From Arctopsyche grandis (lineage: Eukaryota > Arthropoda > Insecta > Trichoptera > Hydropsychidae), in NCBI RefSeq assembly GCF_051622035.1, contig NC_135359.1, forward strand, positions 29,417,501 to 29,481,500: 64,000 nucleotides of DNA, in the 5' to 3' direction. The position numbers and the translations under genes were made by a program. Within the stretch, counting starts at the first letter, position 1; each line of letters starts with the position of its first letter. The notes under the pieces were generated by a model. That model had not been told where the DNA came from, did not search any database, and was given only the letters and a program-made list of their open reading frames with translations. Shown in pieces: positions 10,797 to 51,340 of the stretch.

Positions 10797-11195
10797 TAAC
10801 CAGCAGCATAGCTCGGTGGTGAGGTGCCGGGTTCGATCCTATGAGCTGACCTCGATTGAAAAGAATTTTTCTGAGAATATCTGTAGTGCTGCTGGTCAGA
10901 CTTGGATATTTGTGACTCCAGGTCGATCGTTTCCTATCAGAGTTTGCTAATTTTTCTGATTTTATTGTCCGATTAAAATTGGCTAAAAAACCTTCCTGCC
11001 TACTATGTCAGCACTATTTGAGTATGGTTAATGTACAATAAAAGTTATGTACAATTCATAGATGTCTCGTTAATTTGCGAGTTTTCAGTTTCTGGTAATT
11101 CAACGTCTTGTGAAATAAAAATGCTGCATTGTTTGTAATTGGCCAGGAAGGCGCATTGGGGTTTACCTGTAAGGCCTTCACGGTATATATGTACA
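10797..11195 (+). repeat. SINE, subtype A, full length (best copy)
   Basis: Cleanest example of the family. Pol III-type box A TAGCTCGGTGGT is at 10809-10820 and box B GGTTCGATCC at 10830-10839. The body follows with CTGCTGGTCAGACTTGGATA and GACTCCAGGTCGATCG, and the tail is GGCCAGGAAGGCGCATTGGG then CCTGTAAGGCCTTCACGG. About 15 related copies are recognisable in the window, in both orientations. Confidence 0.88.
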
Positions 11196-21949: not shown

Positions 21950-23760
21950 CCGGCTTCGCTCAGTGTTTATAATATAAACCGCTTAAACATGACTATGCTA
22001 ATTGAATTAAAAAAAAAAAAAAAATTAAAAAAAAATTTAAAAATTAAAAAAAAAAATAAAAAAAAAATCAAAAAAAAAAATTAAAAAAAAAATAAAAAAA
22101 AAATAAAAAAAAAATTAAAAAAAAATTAAAAAAAATTTTTTTAAAAAATCAAAAAAAAAAATCAAAATTTTTTTTGCCTTCTAGGGCTTCGCCCTCGGCG
22201 CCCCCCTGAGCCTTGATTAATGATTAATTGCCGTCTAGGGCTTCGCCCCCCTTAGTTAATGCCTATTAGGGCTTGCGCCCCATGAGGCTGGGCCCCCCGG
22301 GCCCCCTTCGGGGCACCACGGGGCTGCGCCCCTTGTGGCGCCCCCTTTTGAGCCCCATGGGGCTGCGCCCCATGAGGCTGGGCCCCCCGGGCCCCCTTCG
22401 GGGCCCCACGGGGCTGCGCCCCTTGTGGCGCCCCCTTTTGAGCCCCATGGGGCTGCGCCCCATGAGGCTGGGCCCCCCGCGCCCCCTTCGGGGCTTCACG
22501 GGGCTGCGCCCCTTGTGGCACCCCCTTTTGAGCCCCATGGGGCTGCGCCCCATGAGGCTAGGCCCCCCGGGCCCCCACGGGGCTGCGCCCCTTGTGGCGC
22601 CCCCTTTTGAGCCCCATGGGGCTGCGCCCCATGAGGCTGGGGCCCCACGGGGCTGCGCCCCTTGTGGCGCCCCCTTTTGAGCCCCATGGGGCTGCGCCCC
22701 ATGAGGCTGGGCCCCCCGGGCCCCCTTCGGGGCCCCACGGGGCTGCGCCCCTTGTGGCGCCCCCTTTTGAGCCTCATGGGGCTGCGCCCCATGAGGCTGG
22801 GCCCCCCGGGCCCCCTTCGGGGCCCCACGGGGCTGCGCCCCTTGTGGCGCCCCCTTTTGAGCCCCATGGGGCTGCGCCCCATGAGGCTGGGCCCCACGGG
22901 GCTGCGCCCCTTGTGGCGCCCCCTTTTGAGCCCCATGGGGCTACGCCCCATGAGGCTGGGCCCCCCGCGCCCCCTTCGGGGCTTCACGGGGCTGCGCCCC
23001 TTGTGGCACCCCCTTTTGAGCCCCATGGGGCTGCGCCCCATGAGGCTAGGCGCCCCCTTTTGAGCCCCATGGGGCTGCGCCCCATGAGGCTGGGCCCCCC
23101 CGGGGCCCCACGGGGCTGCGCCCCTCGTGGCGCCCCCTTTTGAGCCCCATGGGGCTGCGCCCCATGAGGCTGGGCCCCCCGGGCCCCCTTCGGGGCCCCA
23201 CGGGGCTGCGCCCCTTGTGGCGCCCCCTTTTGAGCCTCATGGGGCTGCGCCCCATGAGGCTGGGCCCCCCGGGCCCCATTCGGGGCCCCACGGGGCTGCG
23301 CCCCTTGTGGCGCCCCCTTTTGAGCCCCATGGGGCTGCGCCCCATGAGGCTGGGCCCCACGGGGCTGCGCCCCTTGTGGCGCCCCCTTTTGAGCCCCATG
23401 GGGCTGCGCCCCATGAGGCTGGGCCCCCCGGGCCCCCTTCGGGGCCCCACTGGGCTGCGCCCCTTGTGGCGCCCCCTTTTGAGCCCCACGGGGCTGCGCC
23501 CCTTGTGGCGCCCCTGGCGGGGCCCCATGAAACTACTCGCTTTGCGCCCCAGCGGGGGTGAATCCATTGAAACGAAAAAAACAAATCGGCGCCCATGGAT
23601 CGAAAAAAAAAAAATCGAATCACGTGTTCGATGACGTCACCGATCTACGGACGACGACGACGAAAACGACGAAAACGACGAAGACGACGACGAAGACGAC
23701 GACGACGACGACCAAGGATATTTACATACAAAGTCTCTTTCCAAATTATAGATTAGATTA
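21950..23760. mobile_element. Composite repeat: CCCGGCTTCGC head, A-rich tract, GC-rich array, GAC-rich tail
   Basis: In order: ACTAGCTGTATTACCCGGCT, a 160-bp A-rich tract with scattered T (22007-22165), CTAGGGCTTCGCCC words, the GC-rich tandem array, a CACGTGTTCGATGACGTCAC segment and a GAC/GAA trinucleotide run (about 23650-23712). A related short head (CTAGTGTTTCTATACGGCTT) occurs at 34748. The whole looks like one repeat unit with an expanded array, but its class is unknown. Confidence 0.55.
22262..23530. repeat. GC-rich tandem array, 90-bp unit
   Basis: The unit is 90 bp, measured from recurrence of GGGGCTGCGCCCCTTGTGG at 22320, 22410 and 22500. It has two related halves of about 39 and 51 bp, each opening with GGGGCTGCGCCCC. 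Some units lack the CCCCCCGGGCCCCCTTCGGGG part. G+C is extreme compared with the AT-rich surroundings. Because 90 is divisible by three, several frames on both strands stay open for 90-180 codons. The open frames follow from the period and base composition and are not called as genes. Confidence 0.93.
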
Positions 23761-45519: not shown

Positions 45520-46130
45520 ACCAGGAAGACCTAACATCAGTGCCGGTTTTGGGGGGGGGGGGCTGGGTCGGGCGGGGCCCAAGGGCGCCAAATTTTATTT
45601 TTATTTTATTTTATTTATACCAGGAAGGCCTAACATAATAAGTTAGGGCGCCGCACGATGCATCAAAGGCGCTTTAAAATTTAAAATTAGAGCGCCAAAA
45701 GCCATTCAAAATTTTAGATTAGAGCGCCAAAGGCAAAAGTTTTTTCTAATGGTGTTTAGAAAAACAGGTAAACCCTAATGCGCCTTCCTAGACAATTAAT
45801 TACAAACATTGCAGCATTTTTTATTACATAAATCGCTGTATTTCGAGACGGTGAAAAACACCTAATCAACAATTAATTAATCCATAGAGAAATCTATAGA
45901 CTTAGACTTGTAGATAATTTTTTACATGGCGGGTAGGATGATTTTTGTCAATTTGATGGTGGAACTATTTCCACAATGAAATCAGATAAATTGGCAAACT
46001 CTGATAGGAAACGATCGACTTGGAGCCTAAATATCCAAGTCTGGCCAGCAGTATTAAGGATAAGCACAGGATCGAACCCGGTTACCTCTTGGTTCAAAAC
46101 ATAAACGCAACCACCGAGCCTGGCTATATT
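45520..46130 (-). repeat. SINE, minus strand, interrupted by hAT-type MITE copy 2
   Basis: The tail complement TACCAGGAAGACCTAACAT breaks at 45545 and resumes near 45765 with AACAGGTAAACCCTAATG. The body runs to a head at about 46065-46125, where the minus strand reads GCTCGGTGGTTGCG (box A) and GGTTCGATCC (box B). Confidence 0.8.
45545..45765. mobile_element. hAT-type MITE copy 2, itself carrying a SINE tail fragment
   Basis: Starts AGTGCCGGTTTTGG and contains the same GCGCC words as 15591-15806 in reverse order. At about 45600-45645 a second SINE tail piece (ATTTATACCAGGAAGGCCTA) is lodged inside it. The right terminal repeat is not visible. This is a three-layer nest. Confidence 0.7.
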
Positions 46131-46778: not shown

Positions 46779-47003
46779 GGTTCGGTGATTACTAGTCAAA
46801 TGTGAACCGGTCACAGGACAACCGGTCGCCCTGGATCGGTCACACGTGATCACCCGTCACACTAAAACTGTTCACACCCAAAAATTAAAAAGTCGAATTT
46901 TTGGGTGTGACCAGTTTTTTTGTGACTAATTTTCGGGTGTGACCGATCTAGAGCGACCGGTTGTCCTGTGACTGGTTCACATATGACTAGTAGTCCGTTT
47001 ACC
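46779..47003. mobile_element. 225-bp Mutator-like MITE with perfect 9-bp target duplication
   Basis: AATAATAAA at 46770-46778 and 47004-47012 is a perfect 9-bp duplication. The ends begin GGTTCGGTGATTACTAGTCA and the complement of GGTAAACGGACTACTAGTCA. The arms pair for about 90 bp (GAACCGGTCACAGGACAACC). A 9-bp duplication and long TIRs fit Mutator-like elements. No ORF. Confidence 0.88.
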
Positions 47004-47012
47004 AATAATAAA

Positions 47013-47590
47013 TATATACATTATCAAATAATACTTTTTTAAAGGGAAATTTTCCCTCATAATTCGAACCCATAAGCAAAATATGGAGTCAACGAAAAAA
47101 ACACTTCACAATTTTTAATAATTTATTAATATCATAATCAAAATAAAGTCATCAGATTTCTAAAATGTGAAAACAATGTTATAGACTAGGATATTGATGT
47201 GCGTTTGACCAGTGTTCTGGTCTATAGTGACCATAATTTTTTGGAGAAAATAAAGAATATAATCATAATCGTTTTATAACCTAAAAAAATGCTTTCTAAG
47301 TTAACAATATTTATTATAAAATAAGAATTTAATAAAACAAAATTTAGAATTTCAAACAATCATATTTATTACACATTATTGAAATTTTAAAGACATATAC
47401 CCAGAGTGATGTAATAAGAATAGAGGGGCCCTTACGAATAAATAATTGATGTAATACGCTACATCGCACGGAATACAATCGGATCAATTTACTTTGAAAA
47501 ATTTGCGAAATAAGCTCATTGCATCACGGGAAAAAAATGGGTATAAAGTATATTTTTGACTTTTAAAATTCGCTAGATAATCAATTTTAA
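47013..47590. other. Gene-free AT-rich stretch
   Basis: No supportable gene. Confidence 0.4.
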
Positions 47591-47599
47591 AGCAATAAA

Positions 47600-47875
47600 A
47601 AATGATCGACTTGGAGTCACAAATCCAAGATATAAGAAAAATCATTTTATACAATTCATCATTTCATACAAAATCGAGATTTTGCGAGAAAATGGGTAAG
47701 GCTGCAAATTTTTTGGAACTGTTTCAATGAAAATCAGATAAATTGATAAAATCTGATAGGAAACGATCGACCCGGAGTCACAAATTCAAGGTCTGGCCAT
47801 CAGAAACCAGTGGGATTTGAACCCGTGACCACTCTGTTCATAGCATTATAAGCGAACAAATATCACATTTAAAAG
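47600..47875 (-). repeat. SINE, subtype B, minus strand, partial
   Basis: GATAGGAAACGATCGACCCG, GAGTCACAAATTCAAGG, then CCAGTGGGATTTGAACCCGT (box B complement). A second scrap of the body (GATCGACTTGGAGTCACAAA) lies at about 47603, so the copy is partly duplicated. Confidence 0.75.
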
Positions 47876-47956
47876 GTTTGTCCATACTGTGAATTTTTAC
47901 ATGATTTGTTAAATCACTATTCCTAGCGAAGCATTTTCAGCACGCTTCATATTTAA

Positions 47957-48443
47957 CCCTTTGTAGGCGGCAATAAATATAGCGAACAAGCCCTGTACGC
48001 GGCGGCACCTTTTTCGCGAATTTAGCAATCGAGTTTTCGACCTTAAATACAGATTTTAATATTTACTCAAGTAACCAGATATGTTAATTAACACATAAAG
48101 TATTATTTTAAACAATAAAATTCATAATATATATCGTAGTTTTGGATTAATTGTCAAATAATCATTCTTCTCAATTGTATGAAGACGTGACGTCACATAA
48201 ACGAGGTTTCAGTATGGTTCCACAAAAAACTAATTTTTACTGGTCTTTATTCATTTTAAGCAAATTGAATAGATGGCATTCAACTCTCAGTAATACATTA
48301 AACCAATTTTGAACCTTAAAACAGTTGAAATAGGCGCATATAAGCCTCAAAATCCCGTGCAAAGTTCAGAAATTCTATGGAAGACAGCCGCGCTACAGAC
48401 TTGTCGCCCAAAGCTTCCATAGAAGACGGCCACGGGCAAACGG
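47957..48443 (-). mobile_element. 487-bp TTAA-flanked MITE, copy A
   Basis: TTAA at 47953-47956 and 48444-48447. The ends are CCCTTTGTAGGCGGC and the complement of CCGTTTGCCCGTGGCC. It has the same length as, and opposite orientation to, copy B at 49934-50420, and the two are near-identical. Lies about 165 bp beyond the stop of the zinc-finger gene, probably in or next to its 3' UTR. piggyBac superfamily by target site; no transposase. Confidence 0.9.
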
Positions 48444-48514
48444 TTAAGGGTCAGGTTAGGTTAGGTTATGTTAGGGTTGGCCCTATTCATTTGTGATTAG
48501 ATTGTTAGGGTCGG

Positions 48515-48607
48515 TATTTTCAATCCTTTCAATCTTTAAAATCCTTTTCTTTCCGTCGTGATTTTTCATTCAAACCTGACTTTTCTGGAAAAGTTTTCGA
48601 GCAGATC
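48515..48607 (-). pseudogene. Decayed 13th zinc finger beyond the stop
   Basis: In the frame one base off, the minus strand after SHTGE reads VRFKCEICSKTFPEKSGLNE and KSRRKEKDFKD before a stop. The two cysteines and FKCEIC spacing are intact, but the His ligands are gone. So the array once continued and the end has decayed after the frameshift. Confidence 0.75.
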
Positions 48608-51031
48608 TCACATTTGAATCTCACACTCTCCCGTGTGAGATTTTATATGTGTTATTAATTTACCTTTCGTTATAAAACATTTCGAACAAAAATCACACTT
48701 GAAAGGCTTCTCCCCTTTATGATGCATCATATGTATTTGTAAACTTTTATTCAATAAATAAGATTTCATACAAATTTCGCATTTGAACGGCAGTTCCCCG
48801 GTGTGTGTGATCATATGCCGCGTCAATTCGCTATTCCTTTGAAAACGTTTTTCACAGGTTACACATTTGAAAGGTCGTTCCCCAGTATGAACCATAATGT
48901 GACTATTTAAATCACCTTTTGCAACAAAAGTCTTTGCACAGAACTCGCATTTGAAATCCTTTCTTCCGATGTGATATTTCATATGCGATGTTAAATTATT
49001 ATTTCGTACGAAGCATTTCGAGCATATTTCACATTTGAAAGGTTTCACTCCGGTGTGATATAGCATGTGCTTCGTCAATTCCGAATTCCTACCGAAGCGT
49101 TTCGAACAGGTTTCACACTCGAAAGGTTTCTCATCGTTGTGCTGTTTCATATGATAATTTAAAGTGCGTTTTTCGACGAAACTCTCCGCACACATCTCAC
49201 ACTTGAAAGATTTATCTCCGTTGTGATATTTCAAATGAGTTTGAAGTCTGCAGTTGGTTCGGAAGCATTTAAAACAAATTTTACACATCAAAGACGATTC
49301 CGCATCGTGGTTTTTCATATGCACTATCAAGTCTCGTTGGCGTGTGTACGATTTTGAACACATTTTACACTTGAAAGGTTTGTCCTCGGCGTGGTTTTTC
49401 ATATGACAATTTAAAACTGTTTTATTTCGGAAACTCTTCGAACAGATTTCGCATTTGAACGGTTTTCCATCTTTGTGAAATCTCAAGTGTTTTGTCAATT
49501 CACAAAACCTTACAAAAGACTTCAAACACATGTCGCATTTGAAATCTCTTTCTCCGTTGTGATAATGCATGTGCCGTTGTAAATTTACATCAGCGGCAAA
49601 ACATTTAGAACAGACGTCACATTTAAAAGGCTTTTCCACAATTTGATGTGCCTCCAATCCACTTTGTGAAATGTTAATTTTATTTGTCAATTTACATTCT
49701 GAAGATTGTTCAGAACCTGTTTTGTTGACATTGATCTGTAAAATGAAACAAATGATTGAAAAGTCAATTACATATAATACAAGCTATAAAAAGAGTAACT
49801 TTTAGTATTGGAATAAATTTTGCCACATTGAAATAATAATATGAAATCATTTATACCACAGTTAAGCAATGGATCTGAAGCAATGGACCACGGTCAAAAA
49901 AATTATGTGGACAATATTTGTAAAATGTATTAACCGTTTGCCCGCGGCCGTCTTCTATGGAAGCTTTGGGCGACAAGTCTGTAGCGCGGCTGTCTTCCAT
50001 AGAATTTCTGAACTTTGCACGGGATTTTGAGCCTTATATGCGCCTATTTCAACTGTTTATGGTTCAAAATTGGTTGAATATATTACTTGAGAGTTGAATG
50101 CCATCTATTCAATTTGCTTAAAATGAATATAGATCAGTAAAAATTAGTTTTTTGTGGAACCATACTGAAACCTCGTTTATGTGACGTCACGTCTTCATAC
50201 AATTGAGAAGAATGATTATTTGACAATTTATCCAAAACTACGATGTATATTATGAATTTTATTGTTTAAAATAATACTTTACGTGTTAATTAACATATCT
50301 GGTTACTTGAGTAAATATTAAAATCTGTATTTAAGGTCGAAAACTCGATTGCCAAATTCGCGAAAAAGGTGCCGCCGCGTACAGGGCTTGTTCGCTATAT
50401 TTATTGCCGCGGGCAAAGTGTTAAACAGTGTTTGTATGATACATTACCATTAAATTTCTATTTACGTTGACATCCTGTTCTTTGCATAGTGAAGGCCTAT
50501 GCATCTGTTCATCTTGATTGAAATGAATAGATTGTTTATCTTCAAACTGATTATTCTTAGTCTGTAAACCAGAAGATTCTCCCCAAATTAAATCATCGAG
50601 TAAAACTTCTTCCACTTTAATAGGATTTGAGCTTTGAACCGGTCTTTGTCTCGCTTCGGCATCACTTTGCTTACAATTACTTTTAAAATCAGTGAACAAT
50701 CCCAAGGTGGATTCACAAGGTAAGCATATTCTAGGAGAAAGATCATCGTATTTTATTGCCTGTAAAAGAAATATTAATCAAAATAAGAATTAGTTATTCT
50801 ATGAGAGTTTTGTTAGGCTTAGTTTGATGATAACAATATTGTTATTACAGCTGTCAAATGTATTGGGGGATCTGTCAGTGTCAAAAATATCAGATAAAAG
50901 CGACTGACCTGCAGACGACAGCAACTCCAGATGCGTTCCAACAGTTCCGGAGAATCCAAAATTTGAATTGAAGAATCTGGTGAAACGACTCGCAAGCAAA
51001 GCCAGCACTCCATAACTTCAAACTTAACCAT
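48608..51031 (-). CDS. ZAD-domain C2H2 zinc-finger protein, 12 fingers (3 coding exons)
   Basis: Exons on the minus strand: 51031-50909, 50759-50448 and 49735-48608, all phase 0 with GT/AG borders, giving about 520 residues. Exon 1 and the start of exon 2 form a zinc-finger-associated domain with its four cysteines at about C9, C12, C53 and C56 (ECWLC ... ICLPC), a dimerisation module of insect transcription factors. A charged, disordered linker follows (about residues 70-180). Exon 3 encodes 12 consecutive C2H2 fingers (about 182-512) with TGE(R/K)PFKC-type linkers. It is therefore a nuclear DNA-binding protein; target unknown. Met7 is a possible alternative start. After finger 12 the frame changes: one extra base turns the next FKCEICSKTF into CEIQM and a stop. 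Intron 2 contains a 487-bp MITE and the promoter side a Mutator-like MITE only 71 bp upstream of the ATG. Divergent to the DNAJC21 gene, about 1.1 kb apart. Confidence 0.9.
49934..50420 (+). mobile_element. 487-bp TTAA-flanked MITE, copy B, in zinc-finger gene intron 2
   Basis: TTAA at 49930-49933 and 50421-50424. Ends CCGTTTGCCCGCGGCC and the complement of CACTTTGCCCGCGGC. Fills about two thirds of the 712-bp intron and is the inverted twin of 47957-48443. Confidence 0.92.
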
Positions 51032-51101: not shown

Positions 51102-51340
51102 GGTAAACGGACTACTAGTCATATGTGAACCAGTCACAGGACAACCGGTCGCTCTAGATCGGTCACACGTGATCACCCGTCACACTAAAACTGGTCACAT
51201 CCTAAAACTGGTCACGAGAAAACTGGTCACACCCTAAAATCGGTCAATCAGTTTTAGTGTGACGGGTGATCACGTGTGACCGATCTAGAGCGACCGGTTT
51301 TCCTGTGACCGGTTCACATTTGACTAGTAATCACCGAACC
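51102..51340. mobile_element. Mutator-like MITE copy 2, at the zinc-finger gene 5' end
   Basis: Same TIRs as 46779-47003 in opposite orientation: GGTAAACGGACTACTAGTCA left and the complement of GGTTCGGTGATTACTAGTCA right. The centre differs, with TCACACCCTAAAA-like words repeated. No clean 9-bp duplication is visible. Lies in the 5' UTR or core promoter of the minus-strand gene. Confidence 0.85.

What the first reader, a model, noticed from the sequence alone, without database searches (positions are those of the whole stretch)
47957..50420. Inverted twin TTAA MITEs bracket the finger-encoding exon
Two near-identical elements of exactly 487 bp, in opposite orientation, lie on either side of the 1.13-kb exon carrying all 12 fingers. 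One is in intron 2, the other about 165 bp past the stop. If both are in the primary transcript they can pair over almost 490 bp, looping out the whole DNA-binding exon. That would favour RNA editing, altered splicing or circular RNA, and at DNA level inversion of the exon.
Basis: partly seen in the sequence, partly recalled or inferred. Interest (0 to 1): 0.75.

Follow-up and report, generated by a model that had tools for sequence, protein, structure and literature searches.

The report
Sister MITE pair around zinc-finger exon
Two copies of a common, non-coding mobile DNA element in a caddisfly sit in opposite directions on either side of a zinc-finger exon, most likely because one copy hopped a short distance; the layout could let the RNA fold on itself, but nothing seen here shows that it does anything.

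Summary
In detail: two 487-bp TTAA-flanked elements, A (47957-48443) and B (49934-50420), inverted, 96.6% identical. B fills two thirds of intron 2 of a ZAD-type C2H2 gene; A begins 164 bp past the stop. The DNA matches Arctopsyche grandis (Trichoptera). The element is common there: 350 exact copies of a 34-mer in 475.7 Mb. Close inverted pairs recur: 3 among 100 listed copies, not significantly above regional clustering (1.1 expected, P 0.10). A and B share four derived changes absent from 42 other copies, so they are sisters, probably from a local hop. A lies between the exon and a decayed finger, downstream of the live frame; nothing suggests that the exon was carried in or inverted. RNA pairing is possible (474 A-B pairs), but A is in the 3' flank, not an intron, and an AATAAA private to A would cut the hairpin to 211 pairs. 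No near-identical protein was among the 120 listed database hits, so expression is unproven. Editing, circular RNA and inversion polymorphism remain untested.

The parts
47957..48443 (-). MITE copy A, 487 bp; in gene-sense direction it reads CCGTTTGCCCG...CAAAGGG
   Evidence: aligned to 20 other genomic copies
47953..47956 (.). TTAA target-site copy, gene-distal end of A
48444..48447 (.). TTAA target-site copy, gene-proximal end of A
49934..50420 (+). MITE copy B, 487 bp, in intron 2, opposite orientation to A
49930..49933 (.). TTAA target-site copy of B
50421..50424 (.). TTAA target-site copy of B
50909..51031 (-). exon 1 (coding part) of the ZAD-ZNF gene, first half of the ZAD
   Evidence: zf-AD PF07776 E 7.3e-6 on the joined exon 1-2 product (26.6 bits, gathering cutoff 28); exon 1 alone matched no Pfam family
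50466..50759 (-). exon 2, second half of ZAD and linker
   Evidence: alone no Pfam family
49736..50465 (-). intron 2, 730 bp, holds B
48608..49735 (-). exon 3, 1128 bp, 12 C2H2 fingers and stop
48535..48607 (-). frame-shifted, decayed 13th finger just past the stop
   Evidence: frame 2; tblastn, E 0.72, weak on its own
48450..48479 (-). CCTAA-like repeat tract between the decayed 13th finger and A
   Evidence: read from the sequence
47853..47956 (-). finger relic beyond A, begins at A's distal TTAA, one stop codon
   Evidence: tblastn E 1e-7
48246..48251 (-). AATAAA hexamer inside A in gene sense, private to A among 22 aligned copies

Best explanation
A and B are two copies of a high-copy, non-coding TTAA MITE of Arctopsyche grandis. 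They come from one immediate source copy and most likely from one short-range hop: one copy in intron 2, the other in the dead, frame-shifted tail past the stop. Shown: TTAA at both ends of both, different flanks, shared derived changes, high copy number, recurrence of close pairs. Inferred: that the shared source means a local hop rather than two arrivals from a small sub-lineage; and that the sites persist because an intron and a dead 3' tail tolerate insertion, so that the bracketing of the exon is a by-product. At RNA level the pair can form a long hairpin that loops out exon 3, but only in unspliced RNA, and probably with only about half of A if the poly(A) signal inside A is used. Any effect on editing, splicing or circular RNA is possible and unproven.
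For: TTAA on both sides of A and B with unrelated flanks, and on both sides of 19 of 20 other fetched copies (the 20th, L017, has TTGA on one side). 350 exact 34-mer copies genome-wide, reversed-pattern control 0; 1295 first-look candidates, only the 40 best scored (A and B among them), each covering at least 483 of 487 bases at 95% or more. A/B share 4 derived events absent from the other copies in a 28-copy set (378 pairs) and in a 44-copy set (946 pairs); the only higher-scoring pair there, L069/L070 (6 events), has the same bases on both flanks, so it looks like a segmental duplicate. A-B identity (96.5%) equals the median of all pairs among 22 copies, so there is no sign of recent homogenisation. 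Three more pairs closer than 3 kb among 100 listed places, all inverted. Finger relic beyond A on the same strand (E 1e-7).
Against: The sister argument is not general. Of the 6 other pairs closer than 10 kb that I examined in the 44-copy set, 2 keep uniquely shared changes (the L059 pair 3 events, L065/L066 2); L058 and L060, which had 3 and 2 among 28 copies, fall to at most 1; L061/L062 and L063/L064 have 0. Two pairs that are not close score as high as close ones: L063/L067, 75 kb apart, 3 events, and L060_1/L068, on different contigs, 2 events. One fragment, L058_2, was dropped before these counts, terminal gaps were masked, and several copies are partial; before masking A/B had 3 columns of this kind and an end-gap artefact ranked first. 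The three pairs 3-10 kb apart are all in the same orientation, so pairs in general are not biased to inversion. Whether other members of the A/B sub-lineage exist was not settled: the diagnostic pattern search did not complete. Gene conversion between neighbours would also give shared changes. The excess of close pairs over local shuffles is not significant (3 vs 1.1, P 0.10). The search for a transposase with matching ends did not complete.
Confidence: 0.8

Rival explanations
1. The inverted pair is functional at RNA level: intron-2 B pairs with A in the nascent transcript, looping out exon 3 and giving edited, alternatively spliced or circular RNA.
For: RNAduplex -819.9 kcal/mol over 473 pairs; the minimum-energy fold of a 3141-nt pre-mRNA has 474 A-B pairs. 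No AATAAA or ATTAAA between stop and A, so A's near half is probably transcribed if the gene is. Donor-like site AAG|GTAAAT at 48663 scores 8.0 against 3.2 for the intron-2 donor and 8.9 for the intron-1 donor, with an approximate matrix of recalled frequencies. Reverse-complementary repeats promote back-splicing in mammals (PMC8516420, outline and abstract seen).
Against: A is in the 3' flank of the terminal coding exon, with no downstream intron seen. The AATAAA inside A would leave 211 pairs. Any inverted repeat gives such a fold. No near-identical protein among the 120 listed of 5710 hits, the only A. grandis entry listed being 42% identical, so expression is unknown. No RNA data were available.
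Confidence: 0.12
2. A supplies the gene's 3' end: a change private to A turned AATATA into AATAAA in gene sense, and the MITE became the poly(A) site.
For: AATAAA at this place only in A among 22 aligned copies; 20 of the other 21 read AATATA there (L025 does not). A U/G-rich stretch follows about 15-25 nt downstream (and the sequence). No AATAAA or ATTAAA between stop and A.
Against: About 5% by chance given 9 private changes, so weak. AATATA is itself a weak variant signal (recalled). AATGAA variants lie between stop and A, at 48570-48565 and 48491-48486. No 3'-end data.
Confidence: 0.3
3. A and B arrived independently from a small sub-lineage rather than by a local hop.
For: The family is large and regionally clustered; the pair's spacing needs no special mechanism (P 0.10). 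One pair on different contigs, L060_1/L068, also shares 2 unique events.
Against: Four derived events unique to A and B among 44 copies. Among the 40 scored matches to B no third copy is as close: A scores 798 bits, the next 784.
Confidence: 0.2
4. The two MITEs and the exon moved as one composite unit, or the exon was inverted between them.
For: Outer ends both carry TTAA.
Against: A finger relic lies outside the bracket on the same strand. Exons 1-3 join in phase 0. A and B each have their own TTAA pair.
Confidence: 0.02

Closest known systems
TTAA-type (piggyBac superfamily) MITEs of insects
   Same: TTAA target-site copies, short imperfect terminal repeats, no long reading frame, high copy number and homogeneity
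   Different: A paper search with letters of the ends listed only two unrelated papers.
Inverted repeats flanking circularised exons (mammalian TE pairs, PMC8516420, outline and abstract seen; Drosophila laccase2, recalled)
   Same: Long reverse-complementary repeats on both sides of an exon
   Different: Here one repeat is in the 3' flank of the terminal coding exon, not an intron; no RNA evidence
MITE in a 3' UTR acting on its host mRNA (rice Ghd2, PMC5338036, outline and abstract seen)
   Same: MITE probably within the transcribed 3' part
   Different: No expression or translation data here; the rice element is stowaway-like; a plant

Membership tests
piggyBac-superfamily MITE | TTAA target-site duplication | tested here: met
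   A, B and 19 of 20 other copies have TTAA on both sides; L017 has TTGA on one side
piggyBac-superfamily MITE | terminal inverted repeats | tested here: met
   Imperfect, about 15 bp: B ends CCGTTTGCCCGCGGC / CACTTTGCCCGCGGC; 11 (A) and 14 (B) of the first 20 positions agree. The usual letters of piggyBac ends are recalled only.
piggyBac-superfamily MITE | non-coding, short, many similar copies | tested here: met
   486-bp consensus, 20 copies 6-12 differences from it (A 17, B 16); 350 exact 34-mers; stop-to-stop frames touching A or B are 50-60 aa
piggyBac-superfamily MITE | autonomous relative with PF13843 transposase and the same ends | not tested
   family search unanswered in all six tries
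circular-RNA-forming inverted repeat pair | repeats in introns on both sides of an internal exon | tested here: not met
   A lies past the stop of the terminal coding exon
circular-RNA-forming inverted repeat pair | 5' splice site downstream of the exon | tested here: inconclusive
   Only donor-like sites within or just past exon 3 (48663, 48611) by an approximate matrix
circular-RNA-forming inverted repeat pair | back-splice junction reads | not testable with these tools
   no RNA data
ZAD C2H2 zinc-finger gene | N-terminal ZAD followed by C2H2 array | tested here: met
   zf-AD PF07776 E 7.3e-6 on the joined exon 1-2 product, but 26.6 bits is slightly under the gathering cutoff of 28; C2H2 families on exon 3; query matches 159 stretches of this genome, three of them this gene's own

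The most novel reading that the evidence does not exclude
A locally hopped MITE pair has turned the terminal finger exon into an RNA loop: pairing of B (intron 2) with the transcribed half of A, whose private AATAAA ends the mRNA, delays intron-2 splicing or gives edited or circular finger-only RNA, so that a transposon pair tunes the dose of a ZAD zinc-finger protein.
Probability: 0.08. Interest if true: 0.5.

Novelty: new member of a known kind. Interest (0 to 1): 0.2.

Why it matters
Mostly as a calibration: in a genome with more than a thousand candidate copies of one MITE, inverted pairs round an exon are expected somewhere, and sister relationship plus regional clustering explain this one without function. 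If the RNA reading were true, it would show a simple route by which a MITE pair alters a transcription-factor exon. A second, possibly more useful lead is that this MITE and the ZAD zinc-finger clusters share chromosomal neighbourhoods.

Tried and rejected
Targeting of ZAD genes by the MITE. Four of 20 fetched 10-kb ZAD windows hold a copy (L038, L040, L051, L055), and 1 of 5 paralogue loci (L032, of L032 and L034-L037). Copies lie after ZAD exon 2 in L032, L040 and L051, past the fingers in L055, and 2.7 kb upstream of the gene in L038. With shifts of 5-50 kb as control, the union of 154 copies gives 7 observed within 10 kb against 4.1 expected (P 0.085), and with shifts of 0.1-1 Mb 7 against 2.4 (P 0.009); the 38 best alone give 5 against 2.1 (P 0.03) with the short shifts, the 100 listed alone 2 against 1.5 (P 0.47). 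I read the association as regional; a weak fine-scale effect is not excluded. I had planned 60 of 128 ZAD windows and 40 evenly spaced background windows; 20 ZAD windows and no background window were obtained, so the 4 of 20 has no control.

General rule 'close pairs are sisters'. Supported with 28 copies, where the four close pairs ranked 1-4 of 378, but not with 44 copies; kept only for A/B and, less firmly, the L059 and L065/L066 pairs.

Composite transposition or inversion of the exon: disfavoured by the finger relic outside A and by exon phase. Viral collection scans with element words gave 0 and 1 matches; the one contig, L001, was not studied. The ZAD part alone found no protein at E 0.001 among 61 candidates. 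A paper search for letters of the element's ends listed two unrelated papers.

Full report
Observation. Self-alignment gives A at 47957-48443 and B at 49934-50420, each 487 bp between TTAA copies, inverted, 96.6% identical over 497 columns. They differ by one insertion and one deletion as well as substitutions, so the equal length is partly coincidence. In the 64-kb window no other inverted pair of 200 bp or more exceeds 90% identity. The host gene reads on the minus strand: exon 1 51031-50909, exon 2 50759-50466, exon 3 49735-48608, all phase 0. Exons 1 and 2 joined match zf-AD (E 7.3e-6, 26.6 bits, slightly below the Pfam cutoff of 28); exon 3 matches C2H2 families and holds 12 fingers, counted by eye in the translation. 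B takes 495 of the 730 bp of intron 2, TTAA copies included; A starts 164 bp past the stop.

Organism. A DnaJC21 protein hand-joined from window reading frames is 99% identical to the Arctopsyche grandis protein P0001, whose contig length (35,353,004) equals that of contig C5, on which the window lies. Taxonomy: Trichoptera, Hydropsychidae. Among the 120 listed of 5710 protein hits of the ZAD-ZNF translation none is near-identical; the only A. grandis entry listed is 42% identical (P0129; only proteins of 0.55-1.75 times the query's length are considered). Whether the gene is expressed or annotated is therefore open.

The element. The own-genome DNA search gave 1295 first-look candidates, of which the 40 best were scored. 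An exact 34-mer occurs 350 times (170 forward, 180 reverse; reversed-pattern control 0), an exact 95-mer 35 times. Twenty copies aligned with A and B give a 486-bp consensus; the 20 differ from it at 6-12 columns, B at 16, A at 17; 19 of 20 have TTAA on both sides. A longer, about 510-bp form also exists. This is a TTAA MITE, most likely of the piggyBac superfamily; the transposase test did not complete.

History of the pair. A and B share derived changes that no other copy examined has: 4 events among 28 copies (378 pairs) and again 4 among 44 copies (946 pairs; several copies are partial, and one fragment, L058_2, was dropped). The only pair with more is L069/L070 (6 events), with the same bases on both flanks, which I read as a segmental duplicate; L063/L067 (3 events, 75 kb apart) share the flank on the one side that was fetched; L060_1/L068 (2 events) lie on different contigs. 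The flanks of A and B are unrelated and each has its own TTAA pair. A short-range hop from one source copy fits best; gene conversion or two arrivals from a small sub-lineage are not excluded. Of 100 listed copies, three pairs are closer than 3 kb, all inverted; three more are 3-10 kb apart, all in the same orientation; shuffling each copy within 200 kb gives 1.1 pairs under 3 kb on average, P 0.10. So such pairs need no special cause beyond regional clustering. By simple scaling (my arithmetic, 3 x 350/100), about ten such pairs would exist among 34-mer carriers alone if the other contigs are alike.

Where A landed. Past the stop the frame shifts and a 13th finger can still be read in another frame (weak in tblastn, E 0.72). 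A CCTAA-like tract follows, then A, then a relic of a finger ([33 protein letters not shown]) that begins at A's distal TTAA (tblastn E 1e-7). A therefore sits downstream of the live frame, between the exon and a dead finger. That the array once ran through is an inference; the stretch between the 13th finger and A is no longer finger-like. The relic lies outside the bracket on the same strand, which argues against the exon having been brought in by the MITEs or left inverted.

RNA. If both are transcribed they pair strongly: -819.9 kcal/mol over 473 pairs, and 474 A-B pairs in the minimum-energy fold of a 3141-nt pre-mRNA. That follows from any such repeat and is no evidence of use. No AATAAA or ATTAAA lies between stop and A; the only AATAAA in gene sense in 47400-48620 is inside A at 48251-48246. 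Among 22 aligned copies only A has it at that place; 20 of the other 21 read AATATA there; about 5% by chance with 9 private changes. If used, 211 A-B pairs remain. After intron-2 removal B is gone, so pairing could act only before splicing. Back-splicing would need a donor past the fingers; donor-like sites at 48663 (8.0) and 48611 (6.4) score above the intron-2 donor (3.2) but below the intron-1 donor (8.9) with an approximate matrix of recalled frequencies, which proves little.

Surroundings. The ZAD query matches 159 stretches of the genome, three of them this gene's own (1125 first-look candidates, 150 scored). MITE copies and ZAD clusters share neighbourhoods; fine-scale enrichment was not significant for the union of 154 copies (P 0.085), though it was nominally so for the 38 best alone (P 0.03) (details in Tried and rejected). 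Copies lie after ZAD exon 2 in three paralogous loci and past the fingers in a fourth, with no similarity found between their flanks, so they look like separate insertions; for L032 and L040, same orientation and same long form, this is less certain.

Literature. Outlines and abstracts seen: PMC8516420 (circular RNAs and young TEs, mammals), PMC5338036 (MITE in a rice 3' UTR represses translation), PMC5333637 (piggyBac prefers highly expressed genes in mouse ES cells, with part of its introduction). Drosophila laccase2 and the usual form of piggyBac ends are recalled. The listings of the searches for this element's ends and for caddisfly piggyBac or MITE work show nothing on this element; no further paper was opened.

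Verdict. Real, correctly described, and most likely an ordinary local MITE pair. The RNA reading is a cheap test, not a result.

Noticed in passing
46779-47003 and 51102-51340: A second pair of elements, each a near-palindrome (foldback type), lies outside the gene, one 71 bp upstream of the ATG. The left copy has a possible 9-bp duplication AATAATAAA at its ends, read by eye from the sequence; arms. Its genome search did not complete.
   Followed up: partly
own genome, e.g. C6:2.4-8 Mb, C3:32.7-32.95 Mb, C12:3.8 and 25.3 Mb: Large clustered expansion of ZAD zinc-finger genes in Arctopsyche grandis: 159 matches to the ZAD query, three of them this gene's own, in neighbourhoods shared with this MITE.
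   Followed up: partly
L032, L040, L051 (after ZAD exon 2), L055 (past the fingers): The same MITE family sits between ZAD exon 2 and the fingers in L040, after ZAD exon 2 in L032 and L051 (no fingers found in the stretch held), and past the fingers in L055, in both orientations and without similar flanks.
   Followed up: partly
C3 and C2 copies L063/L067, L069/L070: MITE copies 50-75 kb apart share derived changes and flanking bases, as if the surrounding DNA had been duplicated.
   Followed up: no
22269-23514: GC-rich tandem array with units around 70-90 bp in an AT-rich window.
   Followed up: no
47682-47857, 45931-46061, 10885-11025 and others: Dispersed SINE-like repeat, several copies in the window; one abuts the finger relic.
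   Followed up: no
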